DNA of 33,370 nucleotides from an uncultured Erysipelotrichaceae bacterium (GTDB lineage Bacteria; Bacillota_I; Bacilli_A; Erysipelotrichales; Erysipelotrichaceae), in NCBI GenBank assembly GCA_902786245.1, contig CADABS010000035.1, forward strand, positions 1-33,370, in the 5' to 3' direction. This document shows, in pieces, positions 18,868 through 28,409 of this stretch. A program made the position numbers and the translations under genes. The notes below the pieces were generated by a model. That model did not search any database. It was not told where the DNA came from and saw only the letters and a program-made list of their open reading frames with translations. The first letter of the stretch is position 1. Each line of letters starts with the position of its first letter.

Positions 18868-19590
18868 ATGAAAAATGCACTGACAGAATTCACGTTCCTT
18901 TCCGTCTGCGCAAGACTGGTGCTGGCAGTATGTGCCGGCGGTCTGATCGGCTATGGCCGGACCAGAAAATCGCGTACGACCGGACTGCGGACGTTTTCCC
19001 TGACTGCCCTCGGTGCGGCATTGTCCGTACTGATTGCGGCTTATGAATATGAAATGATGCTGGGGGACTGGGCCCTGATCGTTGCACAGGCCGGTCTGAA
19101 ATTTGACGCTTCCCGGTTTGCGGCAGCGGTCATCGGCGGCATCGGCTTTCTTGCGGCGGGATCGATCATTGCCATGCCTCACCAGCAGGTCGAAGGCCTG
19201 ACCACGGCGACCGGACTGTTTGCCAGCGTATGCATGGGCATCGCTGCCGGTGCAGGTTTCTACTGGGCGGTGCTGCTGTCCATATTCCTGATCATTCTGG
19301 CACTGGAAGTCATGCAGCCGCTGGAGAGAAAAATACAGCGGCGGCTGCGGAACATCACCTTCGCAGTCGAATTCGAATCGATCGAGAATATCGATGACAT
19401 CTCCGCCGTCATCCGGGATCTGTCTGCGGTCATTCAGGATATCGATATTGAAAGAACAAACCCGGAAGGAGATAAAAATCCTTCTGCCGTCTTCAGGGTA
19501 AGGATGGCCAAAAAGCATCTGTCGCATACGGCCATGCTTTCCTCTATTGCCGAACAGACCTATGTCTATTCCATTGAAGAAATCGTATAG
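18868..19590 (+). CDS. MgtC/SapB-family membrane protein, divergent copy
   Basis: 240 residues: a four-to-five-span N-terminal membrane domain and a soluble ~75-residue C-terminal domain. Family landmarks are present but altered. Where its partner has GFERTYRNKPAGFRTH, this copy has GYGRTRKSRTTGLRTF, losing the Glu, and its second motif reads GFLAAGSIIAMPHQQVEGLTTA. MgtC proteins modulate cation/ATP homeostasis and virulence in other bacteria; transport itself is unproven. GAGG precedes the ATG. It is followed 14 bases later by a second, more canonical MgtC copy, so the two are co-expressed and may pair. Confidence 0.88.
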   Translation: MKNALTEFTFLSVCARLVLAVCAGGLIGYGRTRKSRTTGLRTFSLTALGAALSVLIAAYEYEMMLGDWALIVAQAGLKFDASRFAAAVIGGIGFLAAGSIIAMPHQQVEGLTTATGLFASVCMGIAAGAGFYWAVLLSIFLIILALEVMQPLERKIQRRLRNITFAVEFESIENIDDISAVIRDLSAVIQDIDIERTNPEGDKNPSAVFRVRMAKKHLSHTAMLSSIAEQTYVYSIEEIV

Positions 19591-19604: not shown

Positions 19605-20294
19605 ATGTTACCGATATTTAATTCACTGCGTGACCTGAGTGTCCTTTCCACTGCCGCACGGCTGCTGCTGGCCTTTGCAATCGGTGCGATTGTCGGCTTT
19701 GAGAGAACCTACCGCAACAAACCGGCCGGATTCCGGACGCATATTCTTGTATGCCTTGGCGCTGCGATTTCCGCACTGACCGGTCAGTATCTCTATCTCT
19801 CTGCCGGGCTGCCGGCAGACATGTCGCGTATCCCGGCCGGGGTCGTGACCGGACTGGGTTTCATCGGTGCCGGCACGATCATCATCACAGACAAGAAAAA
19901 AGTCAAAGGCCTGACTACCGCTGCCGGCATGTGGACGACCGGCATGATCGGACTGGCTGCCGGTTCCGGCTTCTATGAAGGCGCGATCCTGAGTCTGATC
20001 CTGCTGCTAACCGTTGAAACCGTGTTCAACCGGATCCGCGAAAGCATTCAGTATGACCCGGTATTCCGGCTGGCAGTCAGTTATTACAGCAAAACCGATC
20101 TGGACCAGGTCCTGCATTACTGCAGAGACTGCGATGTAACCCTCTCCAATCTGAAGATCACCGGCACAAATGCCGGCAGTGCACCGGTATATGCAGCGGT
20201 GCTGCTGCTCCGTTCCGATCCCGGACTCGACCGGGTCGCACTGATCCGCACCATCTGCGGTATGGACGGCATCATCTCAGCTGAAGAACTCTGA
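19605..20294 (+). CDS. MgtC/SapB-family membrane protein, canonical copy
   Basis: 229 residues with the usual signature: GAIVGFERTYRNKPAGFRTH (~25-44), LVCLGAA, then GFIGAGTIIITDKKKVKGLTTAAGMW (~85-110) and GLAAGSGFYEGA. A soluble C-terminal domain of about 75 residues ends the protein. It lies 14 bases after the first MgtC-like gene, with GGAGA upstream of the ATG, and is followed by a bidirectional terminator. No magnesium riboswitch was recognisable in the leader. It is expected in the cytoplasmic membrane. Confidence 0.92.
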   Translation: MLPIFNSLRDLSVLSTAARLLLAFAIGAIVGFERTYRNKPAGFRTHILVCLGAAISALTGQYLYLSAGLPADMSRIPAGVVTGLGFIGAGTIIITDKKKVKGLTTAAGMWTTGMIGLAAGSGFYEGAILSLILLLTVETVFNRIRESIQYDPVFRLAVSYYSKTDLDQVLHYCRDCDVTLSNLKITGTNAGSAPVYAAVLLLRSDPGLDRVALIRTICGMDGIISAEEL

Positions 20295-20328: not shown

Positions 20329-21177
20329 TCATTTCTCAAACATTCTTCTGCGCCGGGTCGATCCGCGCAGTTTTTCTTTCATGCCTTCTTCATCTTCCGT
20401 TTCAAGCAGTGCCCGGAAGGACTGCATCTCTGCGGTAAACGCATCGATTTCACTGAGCAGATAGTCTTTGTTCATCAGGAACAGTTCCGGCCAGAGATCT
20501 TCATTGATCACCGCGATCCGGGTAAGATCCCGGAAGGAATCGCCGGAGTATTCCGCCAGATACTCTGTATCCCGGCTGTTCATCAGACAGACCGCAATGA
20601 CATGGGTCAGCTGCGACAGGAAACCGATCATCTCATCATGTTTTTCTGCGCTCAGGCGGGTGACGGTGCCGAAGCCGAGGATCTTTGCCAGCTGTTCCAT
20701 GGCGCTGATCGCATCTCCGGTATTCTTTTCAGCCGGAACGATGATGAAATTGGCATTTCTGAAGCGTTCCGGATCGGAATAGCGGATGCCCCTGAATTCC
20801 CTTCCTGCCATCGGATGGCAGGCAATGAATTCAATGTCCTCATCCAGCAACGCATTGACCTGTTCAATGATCATCCGCTTGACGCCGGTGACATCGGTCA
20901 GAAGACATCCTTTTTTCAGAACATGTCCGTATGTACGGATCCACTGAATGAATGCATGGGGATACAGACAGCTGATCACGATATCGCAGTCTGCGATCAG
21001 CCGCGGATCAGCGGATCCTTCACTGATCCATCCGTTTTCCTCTGCGATGGCAAGCGTTTCCGCATTGATATCAATGCCTTTGACGGTATACCCGGCACTG
21101 CTCAGTGCTCTCACATAGCTTCCGCCGAGCACACCGAGACCGATGACGCCGAATACGGTATCCTTACTGATATTCAT
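20329..21177 (-). CDS. tyrA: Prephenate dehydrogenase (tyrosine branch)
   Basis: 282 residues from the ATG at 21177 (MNISKDT), which has AGGCGG seven bases upstream; an in-frame GTG three codons earlier is possible. The NAD-binding motif GVIGLGVLGGS, IDIN, DVTGVKR and CHPMAGREFRG identify the family, which converts prephenate to 4-hydroxyphenylpyruvate. The start lies 14 bases inside the 3' end of aroA. It is the last gene of the aromatic operon. The C-terminal ACT domain found in many Firmicute TyrA proteins is absent, so direct tyrosine inhibition through such a domain is not expected; control may lie in the operon attenuator. Confidence 0.92.
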   Translation of the reverse strand: MNISKDTVFGVIGLGVLGGSYVRALSSAGYTVKGIDINAETLAIAEENGWISEGSADPRLIADCDIVISCLYPHAFIQWIRTYGHVLKKGCLLTDVTGVKRMIIEQVNALLDEDIEFIACHPMAGREFRGIRYSDPERFRNANFIIVPAEKNTGDAISAMEQLAKILGFGTVTRLSAEKHDEMIGFLSQLTHVIAVCLMNSRDTEYLAEYSGDSFRDLTRIAVINEDLWPELFLMNKDYLLSEIDAFTAEMQSFRALLETEDEEGMKEKLRGSTRRRRMFEK

Positions 21178-22429
21178 CTGCTTCACCGCCTGCTTTACGG
21201 AAATCTTCGAAAAAGGAAGGATAGCTTTTGTTTACTGCTTCCGCACCGCTGATCCGTACCGGTCCGTCCGCAATGGCAGACAGTACGGAAAGTGCCATGA
21301 CGATCCGGTGGTCGCCATGTCCATCCAGTACCGTATTTCCCCGAATGGCTGTTTTCCCATGGACGCGGACAGTATCTTCCGAAGAAGAGATGATACATCC
21401 GAGCTTCCGCAGTTCTGTTTCCATCGCTGCGATCCGGTCGCTTTCTTTCAGGCGCAGCCTTCCGGCATGCAGGAATACGGTTTCCCCTTCCGCCTGGCTT
21501 GCCAGCGCAAACAGGACAGGACCGAGATCCGGGCAGTCGCCAAGATCAATCTCTGTCCCATGCAGATGCCCCGGCAGAAACCGGTATCCGGATTCCGTTT
21601 CTTCATATGCACAGCCCATATCACGCAGGATGCGCAGAATAACATGATCGCCCTGCCGGCTGTCATGGCGCATGTTGTCCGCCTGCAGTTCTCTGCCGCT
21701 GATGGCACTGAGCACGGCGAAAAACGCCGCCTGTGAATCATCGCCTTCCGCTTTCATTTCAAACGGTCTGTATTTCTGTTTGCCGGGAATCAGGAAGCCG
21801 TCTGCGGTTTCCGTGATGCATATGCCGGCATGGCTGAGAACATCCGCAGTCAGACGGACATAGGACGCTGACGCAAAAGGCGGACGGATGATGATCCGGC
21901 TGTCTTCATGTACCAGAGGAAGCGCAAACAGCAGACCGCTGATGAACTGGGAAGAGATGTTTCCGTCGATTTCAAATGTTCCTCCCCGCAGCGGTCCCTG
22001 TACGGTCAGGGTATCGTTTTTCCGCTCAAACAGAAGCGCCTGGCGGCTGAATATTTCTTCATAGATCTGCAGCGGACGTTCCATCAGTCTGCCCCGTCCC
22101 GTAAATACCGTTTTCTGATCTGACAGTGCAGAAACCGGAATCAGAAAGCGCAGCGTACTGGCGGATTCCCCGCAGCAGATCGCTGTGCCGTCCGGTCTGA
22201 TCATTCCGCCGGTGACAGTCAGAACATCGCCATTGCACTCAACCGCTGCACCGAGTCTGCACAGAGCCTCTGCGGTCGCCTGAATATCGTCATTCATGTC
22301 AATGCCGTGCAGAACGCTTGTCCCTTCCGCCAGCGCCGCCCCGATCAGCATCCGGTGGCTGATGGATTTGCTGGATGGTATTGTGACAGGCGCCTTCTGC
22401 GGATGCATTCCGCCTATGATGACGTCCAT
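21164..22429 (-). CDS. aroA: 3-Phosphoshikimate 1-carboxyvinyltransferase (EPSP synthase)
   Basis: 421 residues, the usual length. Hallmarks include SKSISHRMLIGAAL near the N-terminus, CCGESASTLRFLIP (~85-98), LKESDRI, DGHGDHRIVMAL and NKSYPSFFEDF. It joins PEP to shikimate 3-phosphate, the sixth step of the shikimate pathway. The residue aligned with E. coli Gly96 is Ala (residue 90), and the following Pro101 position is Phe, as judged by aligning on the Arg of this motif. The Gly-to-Ala change is known to reduce glyphosate sensitivity. The ATG is one base from the DAHP synthase stop, and its end overlaps tyrA. Confidence 0.95.
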   Translation of the reverse strand: MDVIIGGMHPQKAPVTIPSSKSISHRMLIGAALAEGTSVLHGIDMNDDIQATAEALCRLGAAVECNGDVLTVTGGMIRPDGTAICCGESASTLRFLIPVSALSDQKTVFTGRGRLMERPLQIYEEIFSRQALLFERKNDTLTVQGPLRGGTFEIDGNISSQFISGLLFALPLVHEDSRIIIRPPFASASYVRLTADVLSHAGICITETADGFLIPGKQKYRPFEMKAEGDDSQAAFFAVLSAISGRELQADNMRHDSRQGDHVILRILRDMGCAYEETESGYRFLPGHLHGTEIDLGDCPDLGPVLFALASQAEGETVFLHAGRLRLKESDRIAAMETELRKLGCIISSSEDTVRVHGKTAIRGNTVLDGHGDHRIVMALSVLSAIADGPVRISGAEAVNKSYPSFFEDFRKAGGEADEYQ

Positions 22430-22430
22430 G

Positions 22431-23447
22431 CTACATATCCCTTCCGATGGCAGCTGCTACCTTGCGGCATCTGCGGATCAGTTCCTGGAAATTCTCCGGT
22501 TTCAGGGACTGGGCACCGTCTGACCAGGCTGAAGACGGATGGTCATGCACTTCAATGATCAGACCGTCTGCCCCGGCCGCAATGGCTGCCAGGGATATCG
22601 GCTCGATCAGTTTCCAGTCGCCGGTCGCATGGGAAGGATCGATAATGACCGGCAGATGGGTGCGCTCCTTGAGAATCGGGATGACCGAAAGATCCATCGT
22701 ATTGCGGGTATAGGTTTCAAAGGTACGGATGCCCCGTTCACAGAAAATGACATTGGGATTGCCGGAAGAAAGAATATACTCGGCCGACATGATCCAGTCT
22801 TCAATGGTCGCGCTCATGCCCCGCTTCAGCAGCACCGGCTTTTTCACATGGCCGACTGCCTTGAGCAGATCGAAGTTCTGCATGTTGCGGGCTCCGATCT
22901 GGATCAGATCGACATTTGCGGCAAATTCATCCAGTTTATCTGCGCTCATCAGTTCGCTGACAACAGGGAGTCCGGTCCTGTCTCTTGCTTCGCACAGATC
23001 CATGATGCCTTCATAGCCGAGTCCCTGGAAGGAATACGGAGAAGTTCTGGGCTTGTAGGCGCCGCCTCTGAGCATATCCGCACCGCATTCGCTGACTTCC
23101 TGGGCGATCCGGCAGATCTGCTCTCTGCCTTCGACGGAGCAGGGCCCGCCTATGACGACGATCTTTTCCTTTCCGCCGACTTTGACACCGGCGACATCGA
23201 CGACCGTATCCTCGGGATGGAACATCCTGTTTGCCAGTTTATAGGGGGCAGAGACACGCTGTACATTCTCAACCCACATATTGGCAAGAATATCTCTTTC
23301 ATAGATATGGGCGGTATCGCCGACCAGACCGAAGACATTGAAGTCCTTGCCTTCGATCAGACTGACCTGCAGTCCTTTTTCTTCGAATGAATCATGCAGT
23401 TTTCTGATTTCTTCCGCCGGAGCGTTTTTCTTCAGGGTGATTATCAT
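22431..23447 (-). CDS. aroF: 3-Deoxy-7-phosphoheptulonate (DAHP) synthase, type I beta
   Basis: 338 residues. The first ~75 residues form a small ferredoxin-like regulatory domain (MIITLKKNAPAEEI...DFNVFGLVGD). The TIM-barrel enzyme follows with IGGPCSVEG, RGGAYKPRTSPYSFQG, KRGMSATIEDW, CERGIRTFE and DPSHATGDW. This is the Thermotoga-like arrangement, where the N-terminal domain mediates Tyr/Phe inhibition, and not the chorismate-mutase fusion of Bacillus. It condenses PEP and erythrose 4-phosphate, the committed step. Its ATG overlaps the aroE-aroK stop (ATGA). The gene symbol is by convention only. Confidence 0.95.
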   Translation of the reverse strand: MIITLKKNAPAEEIRKLHDSFEEKGLQVSLIEGKDFNVFGLVGDTAHIYERDILANMWVENVQRVSAPYKLANRMFHPEDTVVDVAGVKVGGKEKIVVIGGPCSVEGREQICRIAQEVSECGADMLRGGAYKPRTSPYSFQGLGYEGIMDLCEARDRTGLPVVSELMSADKLDEFAANVDLIQIGARNMQNFDLLKAVGHVKKPVLLKRGMSATIEDWIMSAEYILSSGNPNVIFCERGIRTFETYTRNTMDLSVIPILKERTHLPVIIDPSHATGDWKLIEPISLAAIAAGADGLIIEVHDHPSSAWSDGAQSLKPENFQELIRRCRKVAAAIGRDM

Positions 23448-24685
23448 ACAGCAATTCCTGTCCTTTCCACGATCTGCTTTGCCGCATCTTCAGGTGCGGT
23501 GTTGTTGTCGATCTGTATATCGCAGTATTTCCGGTACAGCGGCTCCCGTTCCGCAGCCAGCCGGCGGACAGCCGCAAGGCTGTCTGCCAGCGGTCTTGAA
23601 TCGGTCGGGAACAGTTTTCCGGGATCTCTGCTGATCCGGCAGATAATGCCGTTTTCGCTCAGATACCGCATGGTTTCCTCATCTTTGATGACGCCTCCGC
23701 CGCTGCTGATGATGCGTCCGCCGCCGGAACGCAGCTGTCTGGCCAGATCTTTTTCCGCCTGCCGGAACCAGGCTTCGCCTTTTTCTTCAAAGCAGGTCCG
23801 GATCGGCATCTGCAGCGTTTCTTCCAGCACCTCATCCATCTCGATCCGCTCCATGCCGGTCATTTTCTCCAGCATGGCTGACAGTGTCGTCTTGCCGGAT
23901 GTCGGCATGCCGATGAGAACGATGTTCCGCTGCCGGTTCAGCAGCTGCCGGATACATCTGTCCGTATCTTCCTGCGAAGGCTTTGTGCCGGTAAACAGGA
24001 AGTCGGCCGCGGCTGCCTGGTATACGAGCATCTCAAATCCGCCGATGGCAGGTATCCCCCGCAGCTTTGCCTCAAACTGCAGCCGGGTGCGCAGCGGATT
24101 GGCGACGATATCAATGACATATGACAGATGGCTGAAGCGTGAAAGATCTGCCGGTGCTTCATCATTGCGGGGCACCATTCCGACCGGTGTCGTATTGATC
24201 AGACAGCGGAACATGTCCTCCCGGGCATACATCTGGGCATAGGTCAGTGCCCCGTCTTTCCCGGTCCGGCTGATGACATGCGGTATGCCTCCAAGCTTCA
24301 GGACTGCCTGCACTGCGGCTTTGGAAGCGCCGCCGCTGCCAAGGATTGCCGTATGCAGTCCGGCCAGATCGAATCCGTGTGCTTCGATCATCTGCTGCAG
24401 ACCGATGACATCCGTGTTGTATCCCGTCAGGATGCCATTGCGGCAGACGATGGTATTCACCGCTCCGCACTGTTCCGCCAGCGGATCGGTCCGGTCCAGA
24501 TACGGCATGACTTTCTGTTTATAAGGAATGGTCACATTCAGACCGTCAAAGTCTCTTTTTTCAAGAAATGCCTGTACTTCGTCTTCCTGCAGTTCAAAGA
24601 GCCGGTAATCGGCACCAATCAGGCTCTGATGGATTTCCGGCGACCGGCTGTGTCCGAGCGGGCAGCCGATCAGACCGAGCTTCAC
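23444..24685 (-). CDS. aroE-aroK: Bifunctional shikimate dehydrogenase / shikimate kinase fusion
   Basis: 413 residues joining two enzymes that act in sequence. AroE part (1-~245): SRSPEIHQ, NVTIPYKQ with catalytic Lys56, GYNTD with Asp92, GSGGASKAAV for NADP, NTTPVGM. AroK part (~252-413): Walker A GMPTSGKTT (259-267), EMDEVLEE, SSGGGVIKDEE, DSRPLA and a final YRKYCDIQID. It should reduce 3-dehydroshikimate and then phosphorylate shikimate. The start is GTG at 24685, overlapping the aroC stop (GTGA), and the stop overlaps DAHP synthase. Both active sites look intact. The two genes are normally separate in bacteria. Confidence 0.94.
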   Translation of the reverse strand: MKLGLIGCPLGHSRSPEIHQSLIGADYRLFELQEDEVQAFLEKRDFDGLNVTIPYKQKVMPYLDRTDPLAEQCGAVNTIVCRNGILTGYNTDVIGLQQMIEAHGFDLAGLHTAILGSGGASKAAVQAVLKLGGIPHVISRTGKDGALTYAQMYAREDMFRCLINTTPVGMVPRNDEAPADLSRFSHLSYVIDIVANPLRTRLQFEAKLRGIPAIGGFEMLVYQAAAADFLFTGTKPSQEDTDRCIRQLLNRQRNIVLIGMPTSGKTTLSAMLEKMTGMERIEMDEVLEETLQMPIRTCFEEKGEAWFRQAEKDLARQLRSGGGRIISSGGGVIKDEETMRYLSENGIICRISRDPGKLFPTDSRPLADSLAAVRRLAAEREPLYRKYCDIQIDNNTAPEDAAKQIVERTGIAV

Positions 24686-25776
24686 CGTTCACCTCCGAAG
24701 TGTTCATAGCCATAGCGTCCGATCAGCAGGTCGGCAAAGACGATTGCCGTAACCGCATCGATCACCGGACAGGCTCTGTGCACGATGGCCGGATCATGGC
24801 GTCCGCCGATGCGGATCTGTGTGTTTTCCATGGTTTTCAGATTGACTGTGGACTGGGGTATTCCGATCGAGGGAGTCGGCCGGATCACCGTCTGAAAGCA
24901 GACCGGCATGCCGGTGGTAATACCGCCGCAGATACCGCCGTTATGATTGGTCAGGGTAATGATCTTTCCGTCTTTGACGGCATAGGGATCATTGGCCTGC
25001 GATCCTTTCATATCCGCAAAGCCGAAGCCGCTGCCGAAGGAAACGCCTTTGACTGCAGGCACCGCGAACAGGGCATGGGCCAGCAGGCTTTCGACGGTAT
25101 CGAAGAACGGATCCCCGGTTCCTGCTTCCAGACCGGTCACCGCTGTCTCCAGGATTCCGCCGAGGGAATCATTTTCCCGGGCTGCGGTACGGATCTTCTC
25201 AAGCATCTTCTCTCCCTGTTCATCGGAAAGAACCGGAAATGCTTTGTCTTTCAGTGCATCCATGTCTTTCAGCGGATCCATGGGTCTGTCTTCTATATCC
25301 GCCAGACGCAGAATATGCGTCGCAATATGTATTCCTTCCTGTTCCAGCATATGCATGCATATTGCGCCTGCAGCCGTCAGAGCGGCTGTCAGACGGCCGC
25401 TGAAGTGGCCGCCGCCGCTGGCATCTTCATAGCCCCGGTAGCGGATATGACCGGTATAATCCGCGTGGGAAGGACGCGGTGTATCAGCGAGACGGTCATA
25501 GTCGCTGCGCCGTACATTTTCATTGGGAATCATGATCGTCAGAGGCGTTCCGGTGCTGTATCCGTCTTTGACGCCGGAAAGAAACTGCGGAATATCCGAT
25601 TCGTGGCGGGCAGTTGCGGTTTTTCCGGCAGGTCTGCGCCGGTCCATCAGCGTCATGATTTCTTTTTCATCGATCCTGACGCCGGAAGGCATGCCGTCAA
25701 TGACTGCGCCGACCATCGGTCCGTGCGATTCGCCGACCAGTGTAACGGTCAGATTTCTTCCAAATGTATTATTCAT
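24682..25776 (-). CDS. aroC: Chorismate synthase
   Basis: 364 residues from the ATG at 25776 (MNNTFGRNLTVTLVGESHGP), with AAAGGA upstream; the longer frame to 25866 lies inside aroB and is not used. Signatures are GESHGP, RRRPAGKTATARHESD, GHIRYRGYEDASGGGHFSGRLTA in pieces, and RHDPAIVHRA near the end. It makes chorismate from EPSP with reduced FMN. The start sits eight bases inside the 3' end of aroB and the stop overlaps the aroE-aroK start, so the operon is translationally linked. Confidence 0.95.
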   Translation of the reverse strand: MNNTFGRNLTVTLVGESHGPMVGAVIDGMPSGVRIDEKEIMTLMDRRRPAGKTATARHESDIPQFLSGVKDGYSTGTPLTIMIPNENVRRSDYDRLADTPRPSHADYTGHIRYRGYEDASGGGHFSGRLTAALTAAGAICMHMLEQEGIHIATHILRLADIEDRPMDPLKDMDALKDKAFPVLSDEQGEKMLEKIRTAARENDSLGGILETAVTGLEAGTGDPFFDTVESLLAHALFAVPAVKGVSFGSGFGFADMKGSQANDPYAVKDGKIITLTNHNGGICGGITTGMPVCFQTVIRPTPSIGIPQSTVNLKTMENTQIRIGGRHDPAIVHRACPVIDAVTAIVFADLLIGRYGYEHFGGER

Positions 25777-26776
25777 AATGCAGTTTCCTTTCTGTCTCTT
25801 CCATCGTCCAGGTCTCGATTGTGCCTTTTCCGATCTGATGAACCTGTATGAGAGAAATTGTATCATGGTCCGCCTTTTTATCGGTGCGGATCATCCGCAT
25901 GACTTCCTGCGGATCGGCCTGGCATCGGACGGGAAGACCCATCCGTTCCAGCACCTTCCGCAGTCTTGCCCGGATCTCTTCATCTGCCAGCACGGTCATC
26001 ATGCCCATGGCAACGCATTCGCCATGGAGATATGCATGCAGGCCGCTGACCGATTCATAGGCATGGCCGAAGGTATGGCCGAAATTCAGCAGTTTTCTTT
26101 CACCGCTTTCCCGCTCATCGCGCTCAACGATATCCCGCTTGATTTCCAGACAGCGGCAGATGATCTCATCGAGATGATCCATATAGTCGTCTTTTTCAAA
26201 TACGGCAAAGAGTTTCTCATCGCAGATCATGCCTTCTTTGACTGCCTCGGCCAGTCCGTTGACTACGTGTCTTTTGGGCAGCGTGGAAAGCGTATCCGGG
26301 TCAATCAGAACCATATCCGGCTGCCAGAATGCACCGACGCTGTTCTTATGGCCGTGCAGGTCGACTGCTGTCTTTCCCCCGATCGAGGAATCGATCATCG
26401 ACAGGGTCGTTGTCGGAATATTGACATAGCGGATGCCACGCATATAGCAGGCTGCCGCAAAGCCGCCCATATCCCCGGCGACGCCGCCGCCCAGCACGAT
26501 CACCGTATCATTCCGCGATACATGATGATCCAGCATATCCGCAAGTATATCCTGCAGGACCGTCATATTCTTGTTTTCCTCGCCATGCGGGAATATGTGC
26601 ATATGCGCCTGCGGATACTGCTTCTGCAGGATGCTCTGCCATTGCACGGGTACGCCGTCATCGCTGATCAGAAACACATGGCCGCTGCGGCCGATGATCT
26701 CTGCCGCCCTGGTCAGGATCCCTCTTTCAATGTATACCGGATATGTTCTGTCTTTTGTGCGGACTGTCAGTTTCAT
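25769..26776 (-). CDS. aroB: 3-Dehydroquinate synthase
   Basis: 335 residues with the family motifs VLGGGVAGDMGGFAA, the SMIDSSIGGKTAVDL region, KNSVGAFWQP, KEGMICD and HTFGHAYE. It is NAD- and metal-dependent and converts DAHP to 3-dehydroquinate. GGAG lies ten bases before the ATG at 26776. This is the first structural gene of the aromatic operon, placed only ~18 bases after the U-run of the attenuator terminator (26794-26823), so its expression depends on read-through. Confidence 0.95.
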   Translation of the reverse strand: MKLTVRTKDRTYPVYIERGILTRAAEIIGRSGHVFLISDDGVPVQWQSILQKQYPQAHMHIFPHGEENKNMTVLQDILADMLDHHVSRNDTVIVLGGGVAGDMGGFAAACYMRGIRYVNIPTTTLSMIDSSIGGKTAVDLHGHKNSVGAFWQPDMVLIDPDTLSTLPKRHVVNGLAEAVKEGMICDEKLFAVFEKDDYMDHLDEIICRCLEIKRDIVERDERESGERKLLNFGHTFGHAYESVSGLHAYLHGECVAMGMMTVLADEEIRARLRKVLERMGLPVRCQADPQEVMRMIRTDKKADHDTISLIQVHQIGKGTIETWTMEETERKLHYE

Positions 26777-26793: not shown

Positions 26794-26823
26794 AAAAAAA
26801 ACCATACGGCATTATCCGTATGG
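26794..26823 (-). terminator. Attenuator terminator of the aromatic operon
   Basis: A perfect 8-bp stem, CCATACGG-ATAATG-CCGTATGG, followed by eight Ts on the minus strand, between the leader peptide and aroB. Its loop and inner bases (26808-26816) are also complementary to an upstream segment (26844-26852), so it can be disrupted. Confidence 0.92.
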
Positions 26824-26886
26824 CTTTCATTGCTTTTCCATCAGATAATGCCTGCAAACAGAAACGGGCAATATCTGTGATTGCCC
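26802..26886 (-). promoter_or_regulatory. Four-segment alternating RNA switch (attenuator) in the aro leader
   Basis: In transcript order: segment A GGGCAAT (26880-26886), B GATATTGCCC (26866-26875), C GGCATTATC (26844-26852), D GATAATGCC (26808-26816, inside the terminator). A pairs perfectly with B (7 bp). B pairs with C (GATA/TATC and TGCC/GGCA around one T-T mismatch). C pairs perfectly with D (9 bp, plus ATGG/CCAT further in) and would destroy the terminator. A begins four bases after the leader-peptide stop codon, so a ribosome at that stop would cover it. The predicted logic: stalling frees A, giving A:B, C:D and read-through; complete translation hides A, giving B:C and termination. 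Confidence 0.82.
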
Positions 26887-26889
26887 TGT

Positions 26890-26934
26890 CTATCTAAAGT
26901 AAAAGCTGTAAAATCTTTTTGTCAGTGTATGCAT
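26890..26934 (-). CDS. Phe/Tyr-rich leader peptide of the aromatic operon
   Basis: A 14-codon reading frame, MHTLTKRFYSFYFR, from ATG at 26934 to TAG at 26890, with purine-rich GGAGACGGAAG upstream. Five of its last seven residues are aromatic (F-Y-S-F-Y-F). It lies between the promoter and the attenuator of an operon for Phe/Tyr precursors, like the pheA and trp leader peptides of enteric bacteria. The role is as a sensor of charged tRNA-Phe and tRNA-Tyr rather than as a protein. Confidence 0.85.
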   Translation of the reverse strand: MHTLTKRFYSFYFR

Positions 26935-26953
26935 GTTTTCTTCCGTCTCCGTA

Positions 26954-26982
26954 ATCGTACACGAGCAGGATTCATATTTCAA
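26954..26982 (-). promoter_or_regulatory. Promoter of the aromatic operon
   Basis: TTGAAA (26977-26982), 17 bp and TACGAT (26954-26959) on the minus strand. It fits in the gap after the EIIB-ROK gene stop (27000) and would start the RNA just before the leader-peptide ribosome binding site. Confidence 0.7.
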
Positions 26983-26999: not shown

Positions 27000-28409
27000 C
27001 TATTCCGGTTTGTTTTCAAAATCCTTTGCCAGAGCGATTCCGCCGGCGAACATGTATTCGGAAACATCATCCACCTTGATCATATCCGGCAGGAAATCAG
27101 GCCGGATATCCATGGCCAGGCGGTTGCGGAGGATATCGAGATCGGGAATCATATCGCAGGAAATCGCGATCGCTTCAGGATCGACGCAGGAGATGATCGC
27201 GGTCAGATACTTCGAGACCAGTTCCAGGCTTCCTTCCGGTGTCCGGGCAAGTTCCCGGGGCTCGGCGGAGAATTCCATGATATTGACAATGAACTGCATT
27301 TCTCCGGCAATATTGTTTCTGCCCCGCAGCAGTTTTCCGTCGACAATGTGTCCGACGCCGCAGATCCTTGCGGCATGGGGATGGAAGTAGAAACTGATAT
27401 TGCTGTATTTTTCCTGCAGTGCGTGGAAGCCGAGGGCCATGGCATTGGCGTCATTGATGAAGATGACCCGCTTCTCATAGCGGTTCTCAAAGCGCTTCTG
27501 CACTTCAACATCATAGATGCGCGATTCTTTGAAAGTCAGGCGGCCGCGGTCGATGACACCCGGTGTCGCAATGCATATGGTATCGATCAGATTGTTCGAG
27601 ACGACGACATCGATCAGGTCTTCGAGGTCGCGGACCGTATAGGTTCCCTTGATGATCTGGTTCTGACGCACGATCCGGCCATGTTCATAGACCCGGTACA
27701 TGATCTTTTTGACATCGTATTCGCAGATGACTGCGATGACCAGGATCGATCCGGCAAAATACAGTTTTTCCGTATTTTCATGCACTTCCCGGACAACACG
27801 CTTCTTTTCTGCTGTTTTTTCAGCGACCAGCCGCAGCAGTCCTTCTGTGTCATACTGGGCGAAGATCGCCGTCGGCACGCTGGTGACGATTGTGTCTTTC
27901 AGGATGCCGCGCACGGTCGGATACAGATAGCGGATCTGGGGTGCGAGCAGTACGACATCGGCACTGAAGCCGGAGACAAACAGACGGTCATAGGAAACAG
28001 CCGAAAATTCATAATTCAGATTCAGAAGATCTGCGGCTTCCTGCAGCTTGAGAACAAAGAAAGAAGTCGTCAGGGCACTGCTGCAGCAGAGAATGACCTT
28101 TGTCTTCTGCTTATCCTTGAGTTCGATAAAGCATTCGATCATCTCCCTGAACAGTTCTTTGGCATGATCGAGATCATACATTTCAAAATGGAGATAAAAC
28201 TGGTTGGAATCATCTTTGCGGCTGATGATCTCCAGTTCGCATACTGTTGCCTGCAGTTCGATGAAATCGACAAACGCATCGGCATACGGCGCTGACAGTT
28301 TAATGCGCTCATGGCCGTTGACGCTGATCTGCTCGATCGTATACTCATCGGAAGTCTGCTGCAGGATCCATTCTTTGTATTCCCGGATGATTTCTTCAGT
28401 ATTTGCCAT
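27000..28409 (-). CDS. PTS EIIB-like / ROK-like fusion protein, probable sugar-linked regulator
   Basis: 469 residues in three parts. Residues 1-~100 are an unfamiliar mixed helical/strand domain. Residues ~103-195 look like a lactose/cellobiose-type PTS EIIB domain: KVILCCSSALTTSFF with the phosphorylatable-type Cys109, then DVVLLAPQIRYLYP. Residues ~218-469 follow the ROK fold (CIATPGVIDRG, INDANAMALGFHALQ, GHIVDGKLLRGRNNIAGEMQF). The ROK part lacks the N-terminal DxGxT phosphate loop and the CxCGxxGC zinc motif, so kinase activity is doubtful. No winged-helix domain is evident. It probably senses PTS phosphorylation or a sugar. The start ATG has GGAAGG upstream; it lies just before the aro promoter. 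Confidence 0.75.
   Translation of the reverse strand: MANTEEIIREYKEWILQQTSDEYTIEQISVNGHERIKLSAPYADAFVDFIELQATVCELEIISRKDDSNQFYLHFEMYDLDHAKELFREMIECFIELKDKQKTKVILCCSSALTTSFFVLKLQEAADLLNLNYEFSAVSYDRLFVSGFSADVVLLAPQIRYLYPTVRGILKDTIVTSVPTAIFAQYDTEGLLRLVAEKTAEKKRVVREVHENTEKLYFAGSILVIAVICEYDVKKIMYRVYEHGRIVRQNQIIKGTYTVRDLEDLIDVVVSNNLIDTICIATPGVIDRGRLTFKESRIYDVEVQKRFENRYEKRVIFINDANAMALGFHALQEKYSNISFYFHPHAARICGVGHIVDGKLLRGRNNIAGEMQFIVNIMEFSAEPRELARTPEGSLELVSKYLTAIISCVDPEAIAISCDMIPDLDILRNRLAMDIRPDFLPDMIKVDDVSEYMFAGGIALAKDFENKPE

What the first reader, a model, noticed from the sequence alone, without database searches (positions are those of the whole stretch)
26794..26886. Four-segment alternating RNA structure forming a ribosome-read switch
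Seen: A:B (7 bp), B:C (8 bp around one mismatch), C:D (9 bp) and a perfect terminator that uses D. Each pair excludes the next. A starts four bases after the leader stop codon, where a terminating ribosome would cover it. This gives a consistent logic: stall at Phe/Tyr gives A:B, then C:D, operon on; full translation gives B:C, then terminator, operon off. It is one segment longer in logic than the simple trp attenuator drawn as 1:2/2:3/3:4.
Basis: partly seen in the sequence, partly recalled or inferred. Interest (0 to 1): 0.88.

Follow-up and report, generated by a model that had tools for sequence, protein, structure and literature searches.

The report
Phe/Tyr-sensing attenuator before shikimate operon
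A short RNA in front of the genes for making aromatic amino acids most likely switches them on when a ribosome stalls on phenylalanine or tyrosine codons; it is a new, lineage-specific design of a long-known kind of bacterial gene switch.

Summary
The pairings exist at the stated place (minus strand), before an aroB-aroC-aroEK-aroF-aroA-tyrA operon of an uncultured Erysipelotrichaceae. A 14-residue leader peptide (MHTLTKRFYSFYFR) ends four bases before A. B:C is 10 bp around one mismatch; C:D is 15 bp, not 9. The element recurs in 31 of 70 genus and 47 of 315 order genomes; all 46 distinct loci carry Phe/Tyr-rich leaders without Trp. Tree-aware tests support A:B, C:D and the terminator strongly, B:C moderately.

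Two additions: a pause signature (G-10 Y-1 G+1) placed ten bases after A:B, and a segment Z (leader's last codons and stop) that also pairs with C.

Best reading: ribosome-mediated transcription attenuation. A stall covering Z but not A gives A:B and C:D (on); a ribosome at the stop covers A, so B takes C (off). At equilibrium the terminator wins in every state of the window, but E. coli trp behaves alike. Z's role and the untranslated default are unsettled. No Rfam match. New variant of a known kind; nothing tested at the bench.

The parts
26977..26982 (-). -35 box TTGAAA
   Evidence: 17-nt spacer; equivalent promoters in relatives
26954..26959 (-). -10 box TACGAT; start site inferred near 26947
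   Evidence: start site inferred
26890..26934 (-). Leader ORF ATG...TAG, MHTLTKRFYSFYFR, five Phe/Tyr codons in the last seven, no Trp; SD-like GGAAG at 26944-26940
   Evidence: Phe/Tyr fraction 0.71-0.97 at each of codons -2 to -7 over 38 loci
26890..26899 (-). Segment Z CTTTAGATAG (last codons and stop), complementary to C
   Evidence: moderate support (double-change p 0.006, paired fraction p 0.12; same-branch co-change p 0.51)
26880..26886 (-). Segment A GGGCAAT, on the fourth base after the leader stop
26866..26877 (-). Segment B CAGATATTGCCC; pairs with A or with C
26855..26865 (-). Candidate polymerase pause signature GTTTCTGTTTG: G-10 at 26865, T-1 at 26856 (predicted RNA 3' end), G+1 at 26855; A:B is the presumed pause hairpin
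   Evidence: consensus and 10-nt spacer from PMC9291695
26838..26852 (-). Segment C GGCATTATCTGATGG, hub with rival partners Z, B and D
26808..26823 (-). Segment D CCATACGGATAATGCC, antiterminator partner of C (15 bp); overlaps terminator 5' arm, loop and first bases of the 3' arm
26816..26823 (-). Terminator 5' arm CCATACGG
26794..26809 (-). Terminator 3' arm CCGTATGG (26809-26802) and T8 (26801-26794)
25769..26776 (-). aroB, first controlled gene
   Evidence: Pfam DHQ_synthase
20329..25866 (-). rest of operon: aroC, aroE-aroK fusion, DAHP synthase, aroA, prephenate dehydrogenase
   Evidence: Pfam; gene adjacency

Best explanation
It is a ribosome-mediated transcription attenuator that senses charged tRNA-Phe and tRNA-Tyr and controls the shikimate/tyrosine operon. 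Transcription starts about 13 nt before a leader of 14 codons plus stop that ends in a run of Phe/Tyr codons. RNA polymerase makes hairpin A:B and probably pauses ten bases later (inferred). If Phe/Tyr-tRNA is scarce, the ribosome stalls on the last aromatic codons: it covers Z but leaves A free, A:B persists, C is single-stranded when D emerges, and the 15-bp antiterminator C:D forms before the terminator's 3' arm exists, so the operon is transcribed. [quoted passage not shown] B is freed, takes C, and the terminator forms. A:B thus relays 'ribosome at the stop' to C, which begins 38 nt beyond the stop. If the leader is not translated, or the ribosome stalls too early, Z can pair with C around A:B and favour termination (weaker inference). 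Shown by sequence: segments, leader, conservation, pair-preserving changes. Inferred: pausing, ribosome positions, termination and antitermination.
For: Phe/Tyr leader at all 46 distinct loci; in 38 non-redundant ones 215 of 491 codons after the start are Phe/Tyr and 0 Trp, concentrated at codons -2 to -7. Model R1 holds only the last four codons, yet 13 of the 15 regions fetched that were not in the training set (11 of the 13 from other genera) all have such leaders, 12 before aroB and 1 (L116) before the DAHP synthase gene; the other two, L105 and L106, are training loci L058 and L067 again. Operon makes chorismate and Tyr. Tree-aware null on an AroB tree, 44 of 46 loci, p for paired fraction / double changes: A:B <0.001/<0.001, C:D core <0.001/<0.001, terminator <0.001/<0.001, B:C 0.025/0.009, Z:C 0.12/0.006. 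Sliding the partner drops pairing from 84-96% to 26-47%, for Z:C from 90% to 36-46%. Last codon AGA in 35 of 36 leaders that end in Arg, against 209 of 686 Arg codons in the aroB genes; GAT kept at the leader end in 45 of 46 whatever the frame. Full pause consensus at exactly +10 after A:B in 16 of 38 (at most 3 at any other offset), YG there in 22 of 38. Greedy co-transcriptional folding (46 loci, barrier 5 / 8 kcal/mol): terminator forms in 4 / 8 with the ribosome over Z only, 34 / 24 with it at the stop, 24 / 19 with Z exposed.
Against: No experiment. Full-length equilibrium folding leaves the terminator dominant in all three ribosome states of the window, and C:D beats it in only 11 of 46 loci (16 of 46 with A:B locked) in the stalled state; E. 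coli trp shows the same. With the RNA ending at D, C:D has 6 or more pairs even with the ribosome at the stop in 34 of 46. Greedy folding gives the wrong outcome for the window itself (stop: C:D at both barriers; stall at barrier 5: terminator). Same-branch co-changes: B:C 7 against 4.0 expected, p 0.095; Z:C 5 against 4.7, p 0.51; C:D distal part 4 against 2.4, p 0.195. Aromatic codons at -6 and -7: a ribosome stalled there would leave Z exposed and so turn the operon off under the harshest starvation, which sits badly with Z as an off-lock.
Confidence: 0.82

Rival explanations
1. Exactly the first reader's four-segment switch, without a role for Z: an untranslated leader is ON because A:B and C:D form by default, and only a ribosome at the stop turns it off.
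For: A:B, C:D and terminator have the strongest covariation; the 181-nt fold gives A:B and C:D as minimum energy (though it also pairs the leader start with the terminator's 3' side); RNA ending at D favours C:D without a ribosome in 39 of 46.
Against: Z keeps complementarity to C (helix score 7 or more) in 41 of 46 loci and its nucleotides whatever the frame; from the leader start to the terminator, Z:C (median 7.9 pairs) plus terminator is the equilibrium state.
Confidence: 0.3
2. Classical trp-type attenuator in which A:B is only the pause hairpin and B:C is incidental.
Against: B:C keeps 89-94% of cells paired, double-change p 0.009; C begins 38 nt past the stop, out of reach of a ribosome there.
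Confidence: 0.1
3. Arrest-peptide sensor: the nascent peptide binds free Phe/Tyr and holds the ribosome at the stop, as TnaC does with Trp (TnaC recalled, no call).
For: Short peptide with conserved C-terminal character; the off state needs a ribosome at the stop.
Against: Phe and Tyr interchange, the last residue is R, G, F or S, and the Arg codon is AGA in 35 of 36: constraint on codons and RNA, not on peptide sequence.
Confidence: 0.05
4. A riboswitch, T-box or protein-binding leader.
For: Structured 5' leader of a biosynthetic operon.
Against: No Rfam family at gathering score in the window; best weak match 22.1 bits, cut-off 45; Phe/Tyr leader ORF in 46 of 46.
Confidence: 0.02

Closest known systems
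Enterobacterial trp and his attenuators (trpL, hisL)
   Same: Leader peptide rich in regulatory codons, pause hairpin with G-10Y-1G+1, antiterminator against terminator; his also has an extra hairpin that locks the off state (PMC1183508 passages; PMC9291695 passages)
   Different: In trp the hairpin that defines the pause (I:II) is melted by the ribosome as it moves through the leader (PMC1183508); here A lies wholly after the stop, so only a ribosome at the stop can reach it. One more alternating segment than trp; C has three rival partners. Rfam Trp_leader does not match the window's genome.
uORFC-13-1 motif upstream of aroF in Acholeplasma (Brewer et al. 2021, PMC8632094, passages)
   Same: Candidate Phe-sensing leader ORF and terminator before a DAHP synthase gene
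   Different: 24 representatives, Acholeplasma and environmental sequences; alternating segments not described in the passages read. Not compared by sequence here.
His leader-peptide attenuators of Erysipelotrichales (Ashniev et al. 2022, PMC9413887, passages)
   Same: Same order of bacteria; leader peptide, terminator, antiterminator
   Different: His codons and his operons, six species; structures not compared here
Corynebacterium glutamicum ilvBNC attenuator (PMC11857589, passages)
   Same: Terminator, antiterminator and anti-antiterminator; described as a leaderless type of leader ORF
   Different: Branched-chain codons, three hairpins, other lineage
Two shikimate-associated uORF candidates with Phe/Tyr (PMC6429828, figure legend and passages only)
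   Same: Phe/Tyr uORFs before shikimate genes
   Different: Hosts and structures not stated in the passages read; overlap not excluded

Membership tests
Ribosome-mediated transcription attenuators of amino-acid operons | Short ORF with repeated codons of the pathway's product | tested here: met
   46 of 46 loci; translation itself not testable here
Ribosome-mediated transcription attenuators of amino-acid operons | Intrinsic terminator between leader ORF and first gene | tested here: met
   98% of cells paired, p <0.001
Ribosome-mediated transcription attenuators of amino-acid operons | Conserved, mutually exclusive antiterminator | tested here: met
   C:D core 95% paired, p <0.001
Ribosome-mediated transcription attenuators of amino-acid operons | Ribosome position decides between the two | tested here: inconclusive
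   One search supports it over 46 loci but not for the window alone; equivocal
Ribosome-mediated transcription attenuators of amino-acid operons | Read-through rises on starvation for the amino acid | not testable with these tools
   Needs bench work
Hairpin-stabilised pause (hisL/trpL type) | Hairpin about 10 nt before G-10Y-1G+1 | tested here: met
   window fits; full consensus in 16 of 38 loci, YG at the position in 22 of 38
Hairpin-stabilised pause (hisL/trpL type) | Polymerase pauses there | not testable with these tools
   Needs in vitro transcription
Rfam Trp_leader RF00513 | Covariance model match | tested here: not met
   none in the own genome; E. coli control matches
Rfam trpB motif RF04312 | Score above gathering | tested here: not met
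   20.3 bits, cut-off 59
T-box | Rfam match | tested here: not met
   none
uORFC-13-1 (Acholeplasma aroF) | Sequence and structure consensus of that motif | not tested

The most novel reading that the evidence does not exclude
A position-window attenuator: one RNA hub (C) is contested by three segments that each carry a GAUA-like core (Z in the leader's own last codons, B, and D), so that only a ribosome stalled within about three codons of the leader end, covering Z but not A, turns the operon on; no ribosome, an early stall and completed translation all turn it off. The paused polymerase is released by the ribosome only at the stop, because the pause hairpin lies wholly downstream of the leader ORF.
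Probability: 0.35. Interest if true: 0.7.

Novelty: new variant of a known kind. Interest (0 to 1): 0.52.

Why it matters
Leader-peptide attenuation is textbook biology from enterobacteria; in Firmicutes, amino-acid operons are mostly described with T-boxes and repressors (PMC9413887 and PMC2965389, passages). Here is a conserved Phe/Tyr attenuator family controlling the whole shikimate operon in rumen and gut Erysipelotrichaceae, with no Rfam model. Its pause hairpin and first regulatory arm lie after the leader stop codon, so the signal that represses is arrival of the ribosome at the stop, passed on by strand exchange. That makes a clear test of how attenuators read ribosome position, and 46 natural variants give compensatory mutants for free.

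Tried and rejected
A GUUUC/GGAAAG helix (conserved stretches flanking C) was considered and rejected by eye: variants such as GCUUUG/GGUUAG do not covary, and in the B:C state it would be a pseudoknot with too short a loop; GUUU is better explained as pause signature and GG as the end of the C:D helix. An arrest peptide was considered and judged unlikely. One class/phylum hit outside the family (L123, G755) was inspected and rejected as chance: no aromatic leader. Genomes with the prephenate dehydratase gene directly before aroB have no R1 match (7 loci, L048 L049 L050 L053 L054 L064 L069), no T-box or other Rfam leader and no aromatic leader ORF in 3 kb upstream except one chance candidate in L050. 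L065 and L066 have Phe/Tyr leaders but another architecture and no R1 match; L035 has no leader. Equilibrium folding proved undecisive, hence the greedy co-transcriptional run, which is a single-trajectory approximation without pausing.

Rows dropped or chosen: the training alignment A1 holds 28 of the 70 loci (the rest were duplicates, lacked the upstream DNA, had pheA first, came from other families without the leader, or were L062, L065, L066). In one search, 58 sources were given and 48 matched; 46 distinct. Leader starts were picked by script, two (L071, L118) by hand to an internal ATG. L079 and L116 are missing from the AroB tree. The 38 non-redundant loci come from the 46 by a 0.9 similarity cut. 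A2 was fitted to A:B and C:D, so pair counts for these lean to the structure; Z:C, B:C and the terminator were not in the model, and A1 (plain MAFFT) gave the same picture.

Full report
Setting. On the minus strand the operon is aroB, aroC, an aroE-aroK fusion, DAHP synthase, aroA, prephenate dehydrogenase. Upstream lies a gene with PTS-IIB and ROK domains ending at 27000. Between them are a promoter (TTGAAA-17-TACGAT), a leader ORF (26934-26890, MHTLTKRFYSFYFR) and the structures of the finding.

Observation. All four pairings are there. A:B 7 bp; B:C 10 pairs with one mismatch; C:D 9 bp as stated but really 15 bp, since AUGG after the core pairs with CCAU of the terminator's 5' arm; terminator 8 bp plus eight T. 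The leader RNA is more stable than any of 200 shuffles (z -4.2). No Rfam family at gathering score in the whole window; with relaxed threshold the best are SR1 22.1 bits (cut-off 45) and the trpB motif 20.3 bits (cut-off 59).

Relatives. AroB searches gave 70 loci. Their upstream regions showed the same order in 28 loci: Phe/Tyr leader, A, B, C, terminator. From a plain MAFFT alignment (A1) the on-state pairs (A:B plus C:D) form standard pairs in 83.8% of cells, the off-state pairs (B:C plus terminator) in 95.7%, against 26-47% when the partner is slid by 1-3 columns; cells with changes on both sides are 24 and 40 against shuffled means of 9.5 and 13.1. A covariance model R1 found the element in 31 of 70 genomes of the genus and 47 of 315 of the order, 9 of 79 genera, all hits in the window's family. 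In even samples of the class (4 of 395) and phylum (6 of 392) the only hit outside the family was a chance one. Fifteen regions of weaker hits were fetched; 13 are new to the model (L105 and L106 repeat L058 and L067), and all 13 have a Phe/Tyr-rich leader ending at the right place, 12 before aroB and one, L116, before DAHP synthase. Together there are 46 distinct loci.

Leader peptides. In 38 non-redundant loci 215 of 491 codons after the start are Phe or Tyr, none Trp; Phe/Tyr fill 71-97% of positions -2 to -7 and 16% or less at -1 and at -8 to -12. The stop-to-A gap is 1-3 nt in 34 of 38, so a ribosome with the stop codon in its A site would cover most or all of A (footprint recalled).

Covariation with relatedness taken into account. 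Changes were placed on a tree of 44 AroB proteins. Same-branch co-changes between standard pairs: A:B 12 against 4.1 expected (0 of 2000), terminator 12 against 2.7 (0 of 2000), C:D core 8 against 3.4 (p 0.012), C:D distal 4 against 2.4 (p 0.195), B:C 7 against 4.0 (p 0.095), Z:C 5 against 4.7 (p 0.51). With changes re-placed at random on the tree, paired fraction and double-change cells give p <0.001 for A:B, C:D core and terminator, 0.025 and 0.009 for B:C, 0.12 and 0.006 for Z:C. So A:B, C:D and terminator are firmly supported, B:C moderately, Z:C moderately at best.

Segment Z. The end of the leader, CTTTAGATAG in the window, is complementary to C. Z:C, which was not in the model, pairs 90.1% of cells in A1 (slid: 36-46%) and 89.6% in A2 (slid: 29-61%), with 13 and 21 double-change cells against 5.1 and 8.1 in shuffles. 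Examples: TGTGGATAG with TTATCCATA (L059, L061), TATAGATAG with TTATCTATA (L009/L073), ATTCAGATA with TATCTGAAT (L014), CCTTTAGATA with TATCTGAAGG (L111). A helix score of 7 or more is reached in 41 of 46 loci (median 9, shuffled mean 5.4). Weak or failing cases: L077, L104, L058, L108, L110. The nucleotides stay when the reading frame moves (TTT TAG ATA in L106, L109, L112) and Arg is AGA in 35 of 36, while AGA is 209 of 686 Arg codons in aroB. Z would be exposed when no ribosome, or one stalled too early, is on the leader, and would then keep C from D. Against this, aromatic codons at -6 and -7 would put a stalled ribosome too early.

Pause. After the A:B stem come GTTTC-like bases (TT at positions 3-4 in 38 of 38). 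The consensus G-10 Y-1 G+1 with the hairpin ten bases before the 3' end, as for hisL and trpL (PMC9291695, passages), is met in full by 16 of 38 at exactly that offset and by at most 3 at any other; YG alone 22 of 38. In trp the ribosome frees the paused polymerase by melting the pause hairpin while it moves through the leader (PMC1183508); here it could do so only at the stop.

Energies. At full-length equilibrium: no ribosome, Z:C 7.9, A:B 5.9, terminator 8.0 expected pairs (medians), C:D ahead in 4 of 46; ribosome at stop, B:C 10.7, terminator 8.0, C:D ahead in 0 of 46; stalled with Z covered, C:D ahead in 11 of 46, or 16 of 46 with A:B locked; the window itself has the terminator ahead in every state. 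With the RNA ending at D, C:D has six or more pairs in 46 of 46 stalled, 39 of 46 untranslated and 34 of 46 stop-state loci. In a greedy co-transcriptional run the terminator formed in 4 of 46 (stalled), 34 of 46 (stop), 24 of 46 (early stall), 12 of 46 (no ribosome) at a 5 kcal/mol barrier, and 8, 24, 19, 17 at 8 kcal/mol: the contrast between stall and stop fits, the untranslated state is ambiguous, and the window's own trajectories do not fit.

Leaderless starts. The best promoter's -10 box ends 6-9 nt before the leader ATG in 15 of 46 loci, exactly 6 in 8, which puts the start codon at or next to +1; the others have mostly 12-24 nt (two poor calls, 0 and 1). The window has 19. Leaderless leader ORFs are known for S. 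meliloti trpL (PMC7298713, passages) and C. glutamicum ilvB (PMC11857589).

Prior description. Searches on Erysipelotrich + leader peptide + attenuat, aromatic attenuation in Firmicutes, aroF/Phe/Tyr codons, trpB/uORF motifs, T-box/shikimate, anti-antiterminator and absence of translation found no account of this element in the library held; papers were seen only as search listings or passages. Nearest are uORFC-13-1 in Acholeplasma and His attenuators in Erysipelotrichales; the two shikimate uORFs of PMC6429828 could overlap.

Verdict. A real, conserved Phe/Tyr attenuator; a new variant of ribosome-mediated transcription attenuation, with the first regulatory arm and pause hairpin beyond the leader stop and probably a third competitor for the hub segment.

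Noticed in passing
L055, L058, L059, L061, L062, L073, L075, L077, L078, L080, L084, L089, L090, L098, L118 (relatives): The leader ATG lies 6-9 nt after the -10 box in 15 of 46 loci (exactly 6 in 8), so these leader mRNAs look leaderless, while others of the same family have a Shine-Dalgarno.
   Followed up: partly
L065 (Traorella) and L066 (Faecalimonas umbilicata), upstream of aroB: Phe/Tyr leader peptides (MKIVNNAFFYFYR, MRMNYLVSVFYFYR) before aroB with a terminator but another segment layout; no match to the model. Perhaps independent attenuators.
   Followed up: no
L012, L013, L017, L019, L020, L022, L050, L054: In part of the genus a prephenate dehydratase gene directly precedes aroB and no attenuator was found; what regulates these operons is unknown.
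   Followed up: partly
window 23444-24685 (-): Shikimate dehydrogenase and shikimate kinase fused in one protein.
   Followed up: no
window 27000-28409 (-): A 469-residue protein with a PTS IIB-like stretch followed by a ROK domain, an odd pairing, just upstream of the leader.
   Followed up: no
L116 (G250:C51): In this genus the same kind of element stands before the DAHP synthase gene instead of aroB, so the attenuator has moved between genes.
   Followed up: partly
window 18868-19590 and 19605-20294 (+): Two adjacent ORFs that look like MgtC-type membrane proteins in tandem (by eye, recalled motif, no search).
   Followed up: no
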